Source: Solirubrobacterales bacterium | GTDB lineage: Bacteria; Actinomycetota; Thermoleophilia; Solirubrobacterales; Solirubrobacteraceae | Assembly (NCBI GenBank): GCA_019239375.1 | Contig: JAFAZZ010000179.1 | Coordinates: 1-35,992, forward strand | DNA: 35,992 bases | Direction: 5' to 3' | Shown: positions 21,289-27,956 of the stretch, piece by piece | Layout: each line of letters opens with the position of its first letter | Numbering within the stretch: position 1 is the stretch's first letter | Notes under the pieces: generated by a model | The model's input: only the letters and a program-made list of their open reading frames with translations | Databases searched by the model: none | Told to the model about the DNA's origin: nothing | Translations under genes and position numbers: made by a program

Positions 21289-22272
21289 ATGGGCGATTCA
21301 GATCTGGTTCGGGCGCCGACGGTTTGTCTGCGCGCGGGCGGCAGAACGTTCGAGCTGGGGGACAGGCCCTGGCTGATGGGGATCGTCAACGCCAGCCCGG
21401 ACTCGTTCTCGGACGCCGGGCTGCATCGCACGCTCGAGGATCGCGTGACGCTGGCCGCGGAGCTGCTCGAGGCGGGGGCTGACGTGATCGACATCGGCGG
21501 AGAATCCGGCGTCACCGGCGTGCCCGCGGTGGCGGCAGAGGAGGAGATCGCGCGCGTGGTGCCGCTGATCGAACGGGTGGCCGGCAGCCTCGGCGCGCTG
21601 GTCTCGGTCGACACCTACAAGCCGCTCGTTGCTCGCGCGGCCGTCGAGGCGGGGGCGGCGGTCGTCAACGACGTGAGCGGCCTGCGCGATCCATCACTGG
21701 CCGATGTGTGCGCGCGCTCGGGTGCGGGACTCGTGCTCATGCACACGCGTGCGGCTCCCAAGGAGAAGCTGCTCGATCCGTCGCTCGACGGGCGGGTAGC
21801 CGATGACGTGGATCTCTTCCTGCGCGAGCGGATCGCGGTGGCCCTGGAGCGGGGGGTCGCGTTCGAGCAGCTGATCCTCGATCCGGGACCCGACTTTGGC
21901 AAGACCCCGGCGCAGACCGTCGAGGTGTTGCGCGCGCTGCCGGCGCTCCACGCGCTCGGGCGGCCGGTGCTGCTGGCCGTCTCGCGCAAGGACTTCGTCG
22001 GCGCGATCACCGGCCGTCCCCCGCGGGCCCGGACGGCCGGAACGCTGGCGGCGATCGGGCACGGGGTGGGCGCCGGGGCCCATATTCTGCGCGTTCACGA
22101 CGTGGCCGACGTGGCTGACTTCCTCGCGGTCCGCGCCGCGCTGGCGGGCGAGGCGCCGGTGGATCCGGCGCTGAGGCTAGCCGTGGAGCTGCGCCGTGAG
22201 CCGCCCCGCGCCGCGTCCCGCGACACGCGCGTCGCCGCGCACGGCGAGCTCGACGGCGCCGCACCTCGCTAG
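21289..22272 (+). CDS. folP: Dihydropteroate synthase
   Basis: LMGIVNASPDSFSDAG, DVIDIGGESG, VVNDVSGLRDP, LILDPGPDFGKT. Confidence 0.95.
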   Translation: MGDSDLVRAPTVCLRAGGRTFELGDRPWLMGIVNASPDSFSDAGLHRTLEDRVTLAAELLEAGADVIDIGGESGVTGVPAVAAEEEIARVVPLIERVAGSLGALVSVDTYKPLVARAAVEAGAAVVNDVSGLRDPSLADVCARSGAGLVLMHTRAAPKEKLLDPSLDGRVADDVDLFLRERIAVALERGVAFEQLILDPGPDFGKTPAQTVEVLRALPALHALGRPVLLAVSRKDFVGAITGRPPRARTAGTLAAIGHGVGAGAHILRVHDVADVADFLAVRAALAGEAPVDPALRLAVELRREPPRAASRDTRVAAHGELDGAAPR

Positions 22273-22346: not shown

Positions 22347-23687
22347 ATGTCGATCCTGGACCGCGACGCGCTCGCCGCCAGTCCCCTGGCCGACCTTCAC
22401 GCCCTGGCGTCCGAGCTCTCGATCGACGGCTATCGCCGCCTGCGCAAGGCTGAGCTGGTCGACGCGATCCTCACCCGCCAGGGGGGCGAGGCGACGGTCT
22501 CCGAGGAGGAAGAAGAAGCGGTTGGTCCGGCCGAAGAGGAGCGTCCAGCCGCCCGGCGCCGCCGCGGTCGCCGCGGCGGGCGGAGCCGCGGCGGCGTCCG
22601 CGAGGACACAGAGGAGACCATGGCCGCCGAAGAAGAGGGGGAGGCGCCCGCCGGACCAGCGCCCGAGGGCTTGGAGGAAATCGAGGAACAGGTAGAGCGG
22701 GCGGGCCGAGGTGAGCGCGGCCGGCGCGAGCCGGAGGTGCGCGATCCGGAGGTTCGGGACGAGCGCGAGCGAGGCGAGGACGAGGAGGAGATCGTCGAGG
22801 GCGAGGTGGAACTCCTGCCCAACGGCTCAGGGTTCCTTCGCGTCAACCCGCCCGAGTCCTCCGAGGACGACGTGTACGTCTCGGCCGCCCAAGTCAAGCG
22901 GTGTGAGCTGGTGCCGGGCGACAGGATCTCCGGCCCGCGCCGGTCGGCCCGCCGCTCCGAGCGGTTCGCTTCGCTCATCCGCATCGACACGATCAACGGC
23001 CAGCCGGCCGACGAGGTCGTCGACAGCACCCGCTTCGACGACCTGCCCGCCGCCTTCCCAAGCGAGCGATTCAAGCTGGGATCCGATGATCCGACGATCA
23101 AGGCGATCGAATGGCTCACGCCGTTCGGCTTGGGGTCGCGGGTCACCATTGCCGGCGCGGCACGCGCCGGCAAGACTGAGGCGCTGCGCCGCCTGGCCGC
23201 AACTCTCGCCGGCACGGAGGACTTCCACGTGTCGGTCGTTCTCGCCGGGGCGCGTCCCGAGGAGATCAGCGACTGGCAGGAGGGGCCGGTGGCACCGGCC
23301 GGCGCGGTCAGCTTCGCCGCCTCGGCCGACGCGCAGGCGCAGACGCTCGAGCGCGCGATCGATCAAGCCCGCCGGCTTGCCGCCCGCGGCTCGCACGAGG
23401 TCGTGCTGATCGACACACTCTCCGGGGTTCAGCCGCACGCCGCCCGGAAGCTGCTCGCCTCGGCTAAGAACATCGCCGGGGGCGGCTCGCTCACCGTGAT
23501 CGCCACCGCCTCGGAGCCGGTGGGCGGCGAAACGACCGTGATCGCACTCGATCCGCTGCTGGCCTCGACCGGCCGCTTCCCGGCGCTGGATCTGCTGCGC
23601 AGCTGGACGATTCGGCCCGAGCTGCTGGTCGGCGAGGCCGGCGCCGAGGCGATCGCGCGGGCGCGGATGGAGGCAATCGACGCCTAG
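22347..23687 (+). CDS. Transcription termination factor Rho-like protein, divergent
   Basis: Rho N-terminal helical domain, acidic/RG-rich insertion, RNA-binding domain (GEVELLPNGSGFLRVNPPESSEDDVYVSAAQVKRCELVPGDRISGPRR), P-loop GAARAGKTE, ARPEEISDWQ, Walker B-like VVLIDTL, KNIAGGGSLTVIATA. Confidence 0.85.
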   Translation: MSILDRDALAASPLADLHALASELSIDGYRRLRKAELVDAILTRQGGEATVSEEEEEAVGPAEEERPAARRRRGRRGGRSRGGVREDTEETMAAEEEGEAPAGPAPEGLEEIEEQVERAGRGERGRREPEVRDPEVRDERERGEDEEEIVEGEVELLPNGSGFLRVNPPESSEDDVYVSAAQVKRCELVPGDRISGPRRSARRSERFASLIRIDTINGQPADEVVDSTRFDDLPAAFPSERFKLGSDDPTIKAIEWLTPFGLGSRVTIAGAARAGKTEALRRLAATLAGTEDFHVSVVLAGARPEEISDWQEGPVAPAGAVSFAASADAQAQTLERAIDQARRLAARGSHEVVLIDTLSGVQPHAARKLLASAKNIAGGGSLTVIATASEPVGGETTVIALDPLLASTGRFPALDLLRSWTIRPELLVGEAGAEAIARARMEAIDA

Positions 23688-23696
23688 AGCCGTGGT

Positions 23697-24623
23697 TCAG
23701 TAGGCCGTGCAGCGGGTCCGGTGGCGCGGGACGGCCTTGTAGCGCGGCTCCTGGCCCCGGTGCCACAGGACGGCATCGATATCGGCCTCGCGGGCGCCGG
23801 CGCGCTGCGCGGCGAGGAGCGCCACCGTGTGCAGCGCGCAGCCCCGGATCTCGACCTCTTCGCGGGATCCGTGCTCGATCAGCTCGCCGGCGCCGATTCG
23901 CGCGAGGAGGCGGGCGTCGTAGGTGAGCAGGCCGTCGAGGCGCAGAACGTGCGGGACCAGGTTGTCGGCGAACATCGTCAGCCGATCGAGATCGCGGAAC
24001 GCCGCCACGCCGGCGCGTGCCAGATCGGCGGCGGCGATCTGGGCGCGCTTGAGGAACGGGAGCGCGAGTCGGTCGTAGCGCGAGGTGTCGGCGAAGCTGT
24101 CCCACGCGCTCAGGTGCTCCACGAGGGCGACGGCGGAGCTTCCGGCCCCATCGACGACGGCCGCGAAGCGCCCGCCATGCTCGGTGGTGACGCGCCGCCC
24201 TAGGTCATTCAGCGACCGAGCGAACAGGGCCATCAGCTCGTGCTTCGGATCCTGGTCCAGGGTTCTGGCGAGCGCAGCTTCGTCCAGCCCGGCCAGTGCC
24301 CGTGCCGACCACGGGCCGGACGTGACGAACCGGTCGTGAAGCGCACCGGCGATCGTGAAGTAGCCGGAGCGGCCTGAGCGCTTGCGCAGAGTGGGGAACC
24401 AGCCAGAGCCGAAGTTGATCGCATCGAGGGTCAACCAGAAAGCGGCGAGTTCCTCGCGCGTGCCTTCGGTCGGGTGAACCTCGGGGTCAGAGCCGCCGGG
24501 CGGCAGGTCGATCGGAAGCGTGGCCACATAGGCGGCGATGCGCTCGCGCTCGATGCGCACGTATTCGGCCCGCTCCGCCACGACCCCGCAGGCCGCTCTG
24601 AGCTCCTCCAGCACATCGGTCAC
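23697..24623 (-). CDS. Queuosine salvage protein (Qng1/DUF2419 family)
   Basis: LTLDAINFGSGWFPTL, FRDLDRLTMFADNLVPHVLRLDGLLTYDARLLARI, IEHGSREEVEIRGCALHTV, IDAVLWHRGQEP match DUF2419 motifs. Confidence 0.85.
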   Translation of the reverse strand: MTDVLEELRAACGVVAERAEYVRIERERIAAYVATLPIDLPPGGSDPEVHPTEGTREELAAFWLTLDAINFGSGWFPTLRKRSGRSGYFTIAGALHDRFVTSGPWSARALAGLDEAALARTLDQDPKHELMALFARSLNDLGRRVTTEHGGRFAAVVDGAGSSAVALVEHLSAWDSFADTSRYDRLALPFLKRAQIAAADLARAGVAAFRDLDRLTMFADNLVPHVLRLDGLLTYDARLLARIGAGELIEHGSREEVEIRGCALHTVALLAAQRAGAREADIDAVLWHRGQEPRYKAVPRHRTRCTAY

Positions 24624-24671: not shown

Positions 24672-27600
24672 ATGGCTGACACCGCCACCGAGCTTGAAAC
24701 GCTGCTCGCCGGGCTGAACGAGCCCCAGCGTGAGGCGGTGATCTACGGCGAGGGCCCGCTGCTGATCCTGGCCGGCGCCGGCTCGGGAAAGACGCGCGTG
24801 CTGACCCACCGGATCGCGTATCTGATCGCCACCGATGCGGCCAAGCCGAACGAGATCCTGGCCATCACGTTCACCAACAAGGCGGCCGGCGAGATGCGCG
24901 ACCGAGCCGAGCTCTTGGTCGGCCGGCGGGTGCGGGCGATGTGGGTGATGACCTTCCATGCCGCCTGCGCCCGGATGCTGCGGGCGCACGCCGACCGCCT
25001 CGGCTACACCCGCCGGTTCACGATCTATGACCAGGCCGACTCGCGCCGGCTGGTCAAGCGCTGCCTGGACGAGCTGGGGATCGATCCCAAGCGGTTCACA
25101 CCGGCGGCGATCCACAGCCAGATCTCGGACGCCAAGAACAAGCTGCGCGACGCCGATGCCTATGGGCGGATGGTCGGCTCCTACTTCGAGCAGACCGTGG
25201 CCGACGCGTACCGGATGTACGAGCGCGAGCTTCACCGGATGAACGCGATGGACTTCGACGACCTCCTCGTCAACGCCGTTAACGTCCTGCAACTCTTCCA
25301 GGAGGTTCGCGACCAGTACGCCACGGGCTTTCGCCACGTGCTGGTCGACGAGTACCAGGACACCAACCACGCCCAGTACCGCTGGCTGCAGCTGCTGGCC
25401 GAGGAGCGCCGAAACCTGATGGTGGTGGGCGACGATGCCCAATGCCTGGTCGCCGGCACGTTGGTGACGATGGCCGATGGGTCGCGCCGGCCGATCGAGG
25501 AGGTGGCGGTCGGAGACCACGTGCTATCAGCGTGGGGCGGCGGTTCGTTCGGACCGGCCCGGGTCACGCGAGTGCATCGCTCACGGCGGGTTGATGGGGT
25601 CGCGATCACGCTGCGCTCGGGTCGGCGGCTGGTGAGCACGCCGGAGCACACGCACTTCGCGGGATATCGGTCGGTGGCGCCGGCGGGTGGCGCGGTGGCG
25701 CCGGCGGGTGGGGCGGGGGCGCCGGCGGGTGGCGCGGTGGGGGTGGCGCCGGTGGGTGGGGCGGTGGCGCCGGTGGGTGGGGCGGTGGCGCCAGTGGGTG
25801 GCACGGTGGCGCCGGCAACCCTTCCCCGGCGGGACCTTCAGCCCATCGGCCGCGGCGTTTACCCGAACCCCGGCCGGCGCACGCTCGCCACCACCGCCAC
25901 CATGCAAAACGCGCCAAAGTCGACCTTCGTCCGCGGCTTTGGCGACATAAGCATCCACACCATGCTTATGTCGCCAGGGCGGTCCGCCAGCGGGGAGTTT
26001 GCTGCGTTTTACAGCGGCTCCGCGGACGCTGGCGAGCGCCGGCGGCGTGCCCGGCCGGGCGCGGATGGTGGCGAGCCACGTCGTGACCGGCCCGGCGGGG
26101 ACGCTGGCGAGCGCCGGCGGCGCGCCCGGTTGGGCGCGGACGGTGGCGAGCCACGTCGTTATCGGCTCGGCGGGGACGCTGACGAGCGCCGGCGGCCTGC
26201 CGTGCCCGGCGCGGACGCTGGCGAGCGCCGGCGGCCTGCCCGGCTCGGCGGGGACGCTGGCGAGCGCCGGCGGCCTGCCCTGCCCGGCGCGGACGCTGGC
26301 GAGGCCCGCCGGCGTGGCCGGTTCGGCGCGGATGGAGGCGCGCTCCCGTTGATGCCGGCGGCGTTCGTCCGCGCCGGCATGGTGATGTTCGACCACGACG
26401 GCGGCTATGACGTGGTGGAGAGAGTGGAGCGCGTCGCGCTCGACGCGCCTGTCTACGACCTCGACGTCGAGGCCGCGCACAACTTCATCGCCAACGGGAT
26501 CGTCACCCACAACTCGATCTACGGCTTCCGCGGCGCGGATATCAAGAACATCCTCGAGTTCGAGGACACGTTCCCGGATGCGCATGTGGTCAAGCTCGAA
26601 CAGAACTACCGCTCGACCCAGACGATTCTCGACGCGGCGAACGCGGTCATCCGCAACAACCGGGCCCAGAAGCCGAAGTCGCTGTGGACGGAGCTCGGAC
26701 AGGGCGACCCGATCAAGGTGCGCGAACTCGAGGACGAGCACGCCGAGGCCCGTTATGTGGCCGGCGAGGTCCAGCGCCTGCTCGACGAGGGGGTGTCGCG
26801 AGCGGAAATTGCGGTCTTCTACCGGACCAACGCACAGTCGCGCGTGCTTCAGGACACGCTGGTCCGGGGGGAGATCCCGTACCAGGTGATCGGCGGCACC
26901 AAGTTCTACGACCGGGCCGAGATCAAGGACGCCATCGCCTACCTGGTGACGCTCGTCAATCCGCACGATGCCGGCGCCTTCACCCGCATCGTCAACTCGC
27001 CCAAGCGCGGGATCGGCGCAACGTCGATGTCGAAGGTACTCGCGTACACCAACACGACCGGGACCTCGATCTGGGACGCGGCCTCCGCGCCCGAGCAGGT
27101 GCCCAGTCTGGGTGCGCCCGCGATCAAGGCACTGCGGCGGTTCATGGGGACCATGCAGGTGCTGCGCGAGCGCGCGGAGGCGAACCCACCTGTCTCGGCG
27201 CTGCTCAAGGAGCTCTTGCAGGAGACGGGATATCTCGAGTCGCTCGAGGCCGAGCGGACGATCGAGGCCCAGGGCCGCCTCGAGAACCTCGAGGAACTCA
27301 TCAACGTCGCGGCCGAGTACGACACGCTGACCGCAGCGGAGCCTGAGCGGGAGGCATCGCTGGCCGATTTCCTCGAGCAGATCGCGCTGCTGTCCGACGC
27401 CGATGACCGCAGCGATGACCAGGGGCTGGTCACGCTGATGACGCTGCATAACGCGAAGGGGCTGGAGTATCCGATCGTGTTCATGATCGGCTGCGAGGAG
27501 GGCGTCTTCCCGCACTCCCGCGCGCTCGACGAGGGCGGTCTGGAGGAGGAGCGCCGGCTCTGCTACGTGGGCATCACCCGCGCCCAGCGCGACCTGTACC

Positions 27601-27956
27601 TGACCTACGCCCGCACGCGCAATGTGTTCGGCGCGCGCAGCTTCGGAGCCCCCAGCCGCTTCGTCTCGGAGATCCCGGCCGCGCTGACTGACCGCGATCG
27701 CCAGCAGCCGCGCGGATTCGCGGCAATCCGCGCGCGGGCTACCCGATGGAGCCGAAGTGAGGAGGAGGTGGCTGCCTGGGAGGACGAAGCGAGGTCCGCT
27801 CCGGCGTTCAGGCTCGGTGAGGACGTCGCGCACCCGAAGTTCGGCGAGGGCGTCGTGACCGGGCTCGAGCCGGGAGGAATCGTCGTGATCCGCTTCAGCG
27901 GGGACGGCTCCGAGCGCAAGATGGTGGCCGACCTGGCCCCGATCTCTAGGCGGTAG
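24672..27956 (+). CDS. pcrA: UvrD/PcrA-type superfamily 1 DNA helicase containing an intein
   Basis: LNEPQREAVIYGEGPLLILAGAGSGKTRVLTHRIAYLI (motif I), motif III split as VVGDDAQ | SIYGFRGAD by an intein, LMTLHNAKGLEYPIVFMIGCEEGVFPH, LCYVGITRAQRDLYLTYA. Confidence 0.96.
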   Translation: MADTATELETLLAGLNEPQREAVIYGEGPLLILAGAGSGKTRVLTHRIAYLIATDAAKPNEILAITFTNKAAGEMRDRAELLVGRRVRAMWVMTFHAACARMLRAHADRLGYTRRFTIYDQADSRRLVKRCLDELGIDPKRFTPAAIHSQISDAKNKLRDADAYGRMVGSYFEQTVADAYRMYERELHRMNAMDFDDLLVNAVNVLQLFQEVRDQYATGFRHVLVDEYQDTNHAQYRWLQLLAEERRNLMVVGDDAQCLVAGTLVTMADGSRRPIEEVAVGDHVLSAWGGGSFGPARVTRVHRSRRVDGVAITLRSGRRLVSTPEHTHFAGYRSVAPAGGAVAPAGGAGAPAGGAVGVAPVGGAVAPVGGAVAPVGGTVAPATLPRRDLQPIGRGVYPNPGRRTLATTATMQNAPKSTFVRGFGDISIHTMLMSPGRSASGEFAAFYSGSADAGERRRRARPGADGGEPRRDRPGGDAGERRRRARLGADGGEPRRYRLGGDADERRRPAVPGADAGERRRPARLGGDAGERRRPALPGADAGEARRRGRFGADGGALPLMPAAFVRAGMVMFDHDGGYDVVERVERVALDAPVYDLDVEAAHNFIANGIVTHNSIYGFRGADIKNILEFEDTFPDAHVVKLEQNYRSTQTILDAANAVIRNNRAQKPKSLWTELGQGDPIKVRELEDEHAEARYVAGEVQRLLDEGVSRAEIAVFYRTNAQSRVLQDTLVRGEIPYQVIGGTKFYDRAEIKDAIAYLVTLVNPHDAGAFTRIVNSPKRGIGATSMSKVLAYTNTTGTSIWDAASAPEQVPSLGAPAIKALRRFMGTMQVLRERAEANPPVSALLKELLQETGYLESLEAERTIEAQGRLENLEELINVAAEYDTLTAAEPEREASLADFLEQIALLSDADDRSDDQGLVTLMTLHNAKGLEYPIVFMIGCEEGVFPHSRALDEGGLEEERRLCYVGITRAQRDLYLTYARTRNVFGARSFGAPSRFVSEIPAALTDRDRQQPRGFAAIRARATRWSRSEEEVAAWEDEARSAPAFRLGEDVAHPKFGEGVVTGLEPGGIVVIRFSGDGSERKMVADLAPISRR
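25675..25818 (+). repeat. In-frame approx. 21-bp tandem repeats encoding VAP(A/V)GGA heptads inside the intein
   Basis: Repeated gtggcgccggcgggtggcgcg and variants; protein VAPAGGA VAPAGGA GAPAGGA VGVAPVGGA VAPVGGA VAPVGGT. Confidence 0.9.
25940..25976 (+). repeat. Inverted repeat: 15-bp perfect stem with 7-nt loop inside the intein
   Basis: tggcgacataagcat (25940-25954) / atgcttatgtcgcca (25962-25976), loop ccacacc. Confidence 0.92.
26019..26335 (+). repeat. Approx. 36-39-bp in-frame tandem repeats (about 8 units) inside the intein
   Basis: Repeated gcgcggacgctggcgagcgccggcggcctgcccggctcg and variants; protein units ADAGERRRPARLG / GDAGERRRPALPG / ADGGEPRRYRLG. Confidence 0.92.

What the first reader, a model, noticed from the sequence alone, without database searches (positions are those of the whole stretch)
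22347..23687. Rho-like factor missing the Q-loop and R-loop/arginine-finger segments
Seen: N-terminal, RNA-binding, P-loop (GAARAGKTE) and Walker B-like (VVLIDTL) parts are present. The region equivalent to E. coli [22 protein letters not shown] is shortened to GVQPHAARKLLASAKN, and [27 protein letters not shown] is shortened to ALDPLLASTGRFPALD. In Rho these segments form the RNA-translocating Q/R loops and the arginine finger. The protein may be unable to translocate normally or may use a different mechanism. It also has an acidic/RG-rich insertion.
Basis: partly seen in the sequence, partly recalled or inferred. Interest (0 to 1): 0.62.

Follow-up and report, generated by a model that had tools for sequence, protein, structure and literature searches.

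The report
Order-wide Rho without its motor
In a whole order of soil bacteria, the only copy of the transcription-stopping protein Rho has kept its RNA-gripping part but has lost the loops and a key catalytic residue that let Rho pull itself along RNA, so these bacteria either stop transcription without a Rho motor or use the protein for something else.

Summary
Window 22347-23687 (+) encodes a 446-aa Rho homologue: Rho_N, an acidic/RGG linker, a cold-shock RNA-binding domain, and a trimmed RecA-like domain. Against E. coli Rho it lacks 22 residues after Walker B (Q-loop), 13 around the R-loop and 29 at the C-terminus. Catalytic E211 is Ala. The arginine finger R366 is replaced by Ile rather than deleted, with an Arg one residue further on. 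Walker A (GKT) and the Walker B Asp remain.

This is not a one-off or a paralogue. The genome is a Solirubrobacterales MAG (Thermoleophilia, Actinomycetota). None of 232 genomes of that order has a Rho above the curated cut-off, two closed Conexibacter chromosomes included. The motor-less Rhos form one clade (support 100/99) and partly keep canonical rho neighbours, so they look like rho itself, altered before the order diversified. Selection is purifying (dN/dS about 0.08 for the RNA-binding and 0.16 for the RecA-like domain). In Solirubrobacteraceae-type loci the P-loop lysine survives in 57 of 58 while the translocation loops are gone in all.

Best reading: an ATP-binding, non-hydrolysing, non-translocating Rho derivative that binds RNA passively. 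Function is untested. I found no paper describing it, in a library that lacks most subscription journals.

The parts
22347..23687 (+). Rho-like protein, 446 aa (P0001)
   Evidence: Open frame; Pfam Rho_N, Rho_RNA_bind and ATP-synt_ab; TIGR00767 159.7 bits against a cut-off of 509; the top 50 PDB fold matches are all Rho
22371..22481 (+). Rho_N helical domain, aa 9-45
   Evidence: PF07498 E=6.7e-9; no amino-acid change against L102
22482..22790 (+). Disordered acidic linker with an RGG-type box (RRRRGRRGGRSRGG at 22554-22595)
   Evidence: pLDDT about 38-54; 34% D/E and 18% R/K; an RGGR motif in 40 of 50 Solirubrobacteraceae-type linkers
22794..23009 (+). Cold-shock-like RNA-binding domain (primary RNA site), aa 150-221
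   Evidence: PF07497 E=3.1e-19; equivalents of E. coli F64, R66, D78, Y80 and E108 kept; R185 invariant and R212 nearly invariant at the positions of R88 and K115 (roles in PMC11018626)
23097..23630 (+). Trimmed RecA-like domain, aa 251-428
   Evidence: PF00006 E=2.9e-7; modelled at pLDDT about 92-98; dN/dS 0.16 against L102
23154..23180 (+). Walker A GAARAGKTE (aa 270-278), intact
   Evidence: Position; Lys kept in 57 of 58 Solirubrobacteraceae-type loci
23241..23264 (+). LAGARPEE (aa 299-306), where E. coli has LIDERPEE: catalytic E211 replaced by Ala, R212 kept
23400..23420 (+). Walker B VVLIDTL (aa 352-358), Asp kept
23421..23438 (+). Q-loop excision junction SGVQPH (aa 359-364)
   Evidence: E. 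coli residues 272-293 absent here and in 77 of 77 named relatives
23508..23552 (+). R-loop excision junction ASEPVGGETTVIALD (aa 388-402)
   Evidence: E. coli residues 322-331 absent in 77 of 77
23601..23627 (+). Former arginine-finger segment SWTIRPELL (E. coli SGTRKEELL)
   Evidence: R366 aligns with Ile in an ungapped alignment; Arg one residue further on
21289..22272 (+). folP, dihydropteroate synthase, directly upstream; neighbour, not part of the mechanism
   Evidence: PF00809; a folP homologue also lies upstream of rho in Solirubrobacter, Patulibacter, Svornostia and Thermoleophilaceae loci
23697..24623 (-). Convergent queuosine-salvage gene; neighbour only
   Evidence: PF10343

Best explanation
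This is the rho gene of Solirubrobacterales itself, converted into a motor-less form. SHOWN by sequence: the RNA-translocating loops were lost before the order diversified; the catalytic glutamate and/or the P-loop were then lost differently in different families; the N-terminal domain, the primary RNA-binding site and, in Solirubrobacteraceae, the ATP-binding P-loop are kept under purifying selection; no canonical Rho coexists. INFERRED: it binds unstructured RNA through its cold-shock domain and RGG linker, possibly as an oligomer; ATP binding without hydrolysis sets its conformation or assembly; and it acts as a passive, translocation-independent RNA clamp on nascent transcripts or RNA polymerase, using the loading and RNAP-contact half of Rho action without the pulling half. 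Rho-dependent termination by ring translocation would then be absent from the order. My estimates: 0.85 that it cannot translocate like Rho; about 0.4 for the particular clamp role.
For: Loop loss by spacing and alignment, in all 77 named relatives. E211 absent in the 21 Solirubrobacteraceae and 7 Thermoleophilaceae sequences of the pattern-free alignment. Sole Rho: (0 of 232 over cut-off; in a phylum-wide sample 134 of 150 are over it), including single-contig chromosomes G012 and G016, whose lengths match the Conexibacter records found. One clade, 100/99. Partly shared ancestral gene order. Purifying selection: in closely related pairs dN/dS is mostly 0.08-0.5 in the RNA-binding part and 0.11-0.34 in the RecA-like domain. 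P-loop Lys in 57 of 58 Solirubrobacteraceae-type loci but 0 of 19 Thermoleophilaceae-type. Core and extended RNA-site residues kept. RecA-like core predicted to fold well and to match Rho structures. NusG is present in all 26 near-complete relatives searched. Translocation-independent RNAP inactivation by Rho is a published proposal (Said 2021, seen only as a reference in PMC11018626).
Against: No biochemistry. Hexamer or oligomer formation, ATP binding and RNAP contact are untested. In M. tuberculosis Rho, termination needs a catalytically competent ATPase pocket (PMC4499133), which argues against motor-free termination. An Arg one residue past the R366 position is nearly invariant and might serve as a shifted finger. 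In some relatives the RNA-binding domain is also lost or altered (f4; f3 genera g152 and g153), and a few genomes show no rho-like gene, so the function is not universal.
Confidence: 0.6

Rival explanations
1. The protein has left transcription altogether and is now an RNA-binding regulator, chaperone or condensate scaffold (Rho_N + RGG linker + cold-shock domain), with the RecA-like part only as an oligomerisation or ATP-sensing scaffold.
For: Strong conservation of Rho_N and the RNA-binding domain; RGGR motif in 40 of 50 Solirubrobacteraceae-type linkers; loss of translocation loops removes the classical activity. Disordered insertions in Rho can drive condensates (PMC10284900).
Against: The P-loop is kept in 57 of 58 Solirubrobacteraceae-type loci and the RecA-like domain is under purifying selection. 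NusG, a known Rho partner, is still present, but it has other roles.
Confidence: 0.25
2. It is still a working but unusual Rho motor, with a one-residue-shifted arginine finger and other residues replacing the Q- and R-loops and E211.
For: Walker A and Walker B Asp intact, R212 kept; nearly invariant Arg next to the R366 position.
Against: The Walker A to Walker B spacing is unchanged and there is no compensating insertion here. The Q-loop, R-loop and catalytic Glu are gone together and the C-terminal helices are halved. Sister families lose the P-loop too.
Confidence: 0.08
3. It is a decaying relic with no function.
For: Stepwise decay across families, further truncation in f3 genera g152 and g153, and no rho-like match in a few genomes.
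Against: dN/dS is well below 1 in both folded domains in most pairs, the frame is open across many genera, and the P-loop is strictly kept in one family.
Confidence: 0.05
4. Artefact: a canonical rho exists but was missed in an incomplete metagenome assembly, and this is a second paralogue.
For: The window's genome is a MAG, 87% complete with 6% contamination.
Against: 0 of 232 genomes of the order, 112 of them at least 90% complete, and two single-contig chromosomes lack a canonical rho.
Confidence: 0.02

Closest known systems
Canonical transcription termination factor Rho (TIGR00767 / NF006886; E. coli, Thermotoga, M. tuberculosis structures)
   Same: Domain order Rho_N, insertion, cold-shock RNA-binding domain, RecA-like domain; the fold; primary RNA-site residues; Walker A, Walker B and R212; part of the ancestral neighbourhood.
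   Different: No Q-loop, no R-loop, no catalytic E211, R366 replaced, C-terminal helices halved; 159.7 bits against a 509 cut-off.
Short paralogous Rho2 (NF041509)
   Same: Recognised (E=1e-35) as a Rho relative.
   Different: Scores 123.7 against a 628 cut-off. Second Rho copies elsewhere in the phylum score about 470-525 bits over nearly the whole Rho model and sit beside a canonical Rho; this one is the only copy and lacks the loops.
M. tuberculosis / actinobacterial Rho with a basic N-terminal insertion
   Same: Actinomycetota; long low-complexity insertion between Rho_N and the cold-shock domain (PMC4167861, PMC10284900).
   Different: MtbRho keeps all motor residues and needs ATP hydrolysis to terminate (PMC8828861, PMC4499133).
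Degenerate Rhos of family f32 (G079, G610-G613), another actinobacterial lineage
   Same: Sub-cut-off Rho with P-loop loss (AGRT, ADGT, ADGA, ALVT) and changes in the Q- and R-loop regions.
   Different: Distant from the window's clade in the tree (G079 only), so probably a separate decay; most Q- and R-loop residues still present; E211 kept in some.

Membership tests
Transcription termination factor Rho | Score above the curated family cut-off (TIGR00767 / NF006886) | tested here: not met
   159.7 against 509.45 and 176 against 315 bits; 0 of 232 genomes of the order pass TIGR00767
Transcription termination factor Rho | Rho_N and cold-shock RNA-binding domains with primary-site residues | tested here: met
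   PF07498 and PF07497 above cut-off; F64, R66, D78, Y80, E108 equivalents kept
Transcription termination factor Rho | Walker A Lys and Walker B Asp | tested here: met
   GKT and LID; 57 of 58 each in Solirubrobacteraceae-type loci
Transcription termination factor Rho | Catalytic glutamate (E211) | tested here: not met
   Ala in the window; Val/Ala in relatives
Transcription termination factor Rho | Q-loop of the secondary RNA-binding site | tested here: not met
   E. coli residues 272-293 absent in the window and 77 of 77 relatives
Transcription termination factor Rho | R-loop of the secondary RNA-binding site | tested here: not met
   E. coli residues 322-331 absent in 77 of 77
Transcription termination factor Rho | Arginine finger (R366) | tested here: inconclusive
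   Ile at the aligned position, but a nearly invariant Arg one residue on
Transcription termination factor Rho | Descent from the ancestral rho gene | tested here: met
   The order forms one Rho clade, 100/99; it shares upstream genes with canonical rho loci of the class: metallophosphoesterase plus two genes in L169/L172 and L096/L097, transaldolase in L094/L095/L101 and L097
Transcription termination factor Rho | Hexameric RNA-dependent ATPase, translocase, terminator | not testable with these tools
   Needs purified protein
Short paralogous Rho2 (NF041509) | Score above 628 bits | tested here: not met
   123.7 bits

The most novel reading that the evidence does not exclude
A whole bacterial order keeps Rho-like control of transcription without a Rho motor: ATP-bound, non-hydrolysing Rho grips nascent RNA and RNA polymerase and halts or modulates transcription without translocating.
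Probability: 0.25. Interest if true: 0.88.

Novelty: new variant of a known kind. Interest (0 to 1): 0.68.

Why it matters
Rho is treated as an ATP-driven RNA motor, and whether RNA polymerase can be inactivated without translocation is debated. Here an entire order, with cultured members (Conexibacter, Solirubrobacter, Patulibacter), has lost the motor of its only Rho while still selecting for RNA binding and, in one family, ATP binding. That is a natural separation of Rho's RNA-gripping role from its pulling role and makes the question directly testable. It also means that annotation pipelines may name a Rho, and predictions may assume Rho-dependent termination and bicyclomycin sensitivity, where none is expected.

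Tried and rejected
Sequencing error or frameshift: rejected, the same gaps occur in dozens of independent assemblies. Second canonical rho: none. Rho2 paralogue: rejected by score. Relocated loops: rejected by spacing. Pseudogene: rejected for the window's family by dN/dS. The group table and the one-clade AU test printed are disregarded: my labels matched f22, f25, f32, f37 and f43 by substring; the tree itself is unaffected. The named set was found partly through the pattern VRPEE, so its E211 counts are biased; the relatives were not chosen that way. Literature: no paper in the library holds Rho termination terms together with Thermoleophilia, Solirubrobacter or Conexibacter; the 2013 phyletic survey by D'Heygere et al. 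is not held, so an earlier mention cannot be excluded.

Full report
WHAT IS THERE. The frame 22347-23687 (+) is open and encodes 446 aa. Pfam finds Rho_N at aa 9-45, Rho_RNA_bind at 150-221 and a weak ATP-synt_ab match at 251-360. The best NCBIfam matches are Rho models, far under their cut-offs (TIGR00767 159.7 against 509 bits; NF006886 176 against 315).

WHAT IS MISSING. Distances between landmarks, independent of any alignment, show where material was removed: Walker A Lys to Walker B Asp 80 residues (E. coli 81); Walker B Asp to the next core strand 25 (47); that strand to FPAxD 30 (43); FPAxD to the end 35 (64). In E. coli numbering, residues 272-293 (Q-loop) and 322-331 (R-loop) are absent, E211 is Ala, R353 aligns with Gly and R366 with Ile, while K184, T185, R212 and D265 are kept. 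Q- and R-loops form the secondary RNA site that moves RNA through the ring; E211, R212 and the arginine finger are required for hydrolysis (PMC8828861). One caveat: an Arg is nearly invariant one residue after the R366 position (R423), so a shifted finger cannot be excluded. The remaining RecA-like domain is predicted with pLDDT about 92-98, and the 50 best PDB fold matches are all Rho.

WHAT IS KEPT. Primary RNA-site residues equivalent to F64, R66, D78, Y80 and E108 are present. Arg185 and Arg212 sit where E. coli has R88 and K115, residues of the extended RNA site (PMC11018626). F62 is Ser, but a Rho from an Armatimonadetes MAG with all motor residues also has Ser there (L180), so this is not a loss of function by itself. 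Between Rho_N and the cold-shock domain lies a disordered linker, 34% D/E, with an RGG-type box; an RGGR motif recurs in 40 of 50 Solirubrobacteraceae-type linkers.

IT IS THE ONLY RHO, ORDER-WIDE. The window is contig C13 of a 4.7 Mb, 87% complete MAG with no other Rho. Records of named relatives place it in Solirubrobacterales. Of 232 genomes of that order, 112 of them at least 90% complete with low contamination, none has a Rho above the cut-off; in a phylum-wide sample 134 of 150 do. G012 and G016 are single-contig genomes whose lengths equal those of the Conexibacter sp. S30A1 and DBS9H8 chromosomes; both have only the motor-less form. Other families of the class have canonical Rho (f6, f7, f51, f54), and four of the five f5 genomes sampled gave no match at all; the fifth (G118) gave only a 69-bit partial match.

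ONE ORIGIN, THEN DIFFERENT DECAY. On a tree built without the deleted columns, all 43 Solirubrobacterales sequences form one clade (100/99), with f3 branching first. Families differ: Solirubrobacteraceae (f1) keep the P-loop but lack E211; Thermoleophilaceae (f2) lack both; f3 mostly keeps E211 and the C-terminal helices but has Arg or Ala at K184; f4 lacks the P-loop and key RNA-site residues. The shared loss is the translocation loops, so that loss came first by parsimony (inference). The genes immediately upstream are partly shared with canonical rho loci of the class: a metallophosphoesterase plus two genes in L169/L172 and L096/L097, and a transaldolase in L094/L095/L101 and L097. This supports vertical descent rather than a late-acquired paralogue.

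IT IS UNDER SELECTION. Between the window and its nearest relative (89% identity), Nei-Gojobori dN/dS is 0 for Rho_N, 0.08 for the RNA-binding domain, 0.16 for the RecA-like domain and 0.27 for the linker; the RecA-like domain gives 0.11-0.34 in the 14 pairs. These are simple estimates on GC-rich codons, and the RNA-binding values are less even (up to 0.54 where my domain boundary took in linker). In 58 Solirubrobacteraceae-type loci the P-loop Lys is kept in 57 and Walker B Asp in 57, while the Q-loop and E211 are kept in none (the E211 count is biased because one search pattern was VRPEE).

HOW IT MOST LIKELY WORKS. Shown: translocation loops and catalytic Glu absent; RNA site and ATP-binding motifs present and selected; no canonical Rho. 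Inferred: RNA binding through the cold-shock domain and RGG linker, ATP binding without hydrolysis, and a passive role on nascent RNA or RNA polymerase. Translocation-independent inactivation of RNA polymerase by Rho has been proposed (Said 2021, seen here only as a reference in PMC11018626), whereas M. tuberculosis Rho needs a competent ATPase to terminate (PMC4499133). The main rival is a purely post-transcriptional RNA-binding role.

MEMBERSHIP AND NOVELTY. By descent it is rho; by the tested definition of a Rho terminator (cut-off, secondary RNA site, catalytic Glu) it is not one. I therefore call it a new variant of a known kind. No paper describing it was found in the held library; the 2013 Rho survey is not held. 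A second lineage, family f32, shows a similar and probably separate decay, so losing the Rho motor while keeping the gene may be a recurring path in Actinomycetota.

Noticed in passing
window 24672-27956 (+): UvrD/PcrA helicase of 1094 aa interrupted by an intein-like insert (PF14890, PF05203; about aa 258-620) that itself holds GC-rich tandem repeats at 25672-25816 and 26021-26332; the Conexibacter S30A1 homologue (L092 16039-18270, 743-residue frame) is about 350 aa shorter.
   Followed up: partly
G079, and G610-G613 (loci L208-L211): Family f32, another actinobacterial lineage, has sub-cut-off Rhos with lost P-loops (AGRT, ADGT, ADGA, ALVT) and, in G610/G611, a shortened Q-loop: a probably independent case of Rho motor decay.
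   Followed up: partly
L212-L216 (family f3, genera g152 and g153): Shorter frames (219-290 aa) match only the Rho_N part and part of the RecA-like domain; the RNA-binding domain appears to be gone.
   Followed up: no
family f5 (genomes G054, G129, G172, G183), same class: Near-complete genomes of the class with no Rho match at E 1e-12.
   Followed up: no
window 23687-23697: The rho-like gene and the convergent queuosine-salvage gene end only 9 bases apart, leaving no room for a separate terminator between them.
   Followed up: no
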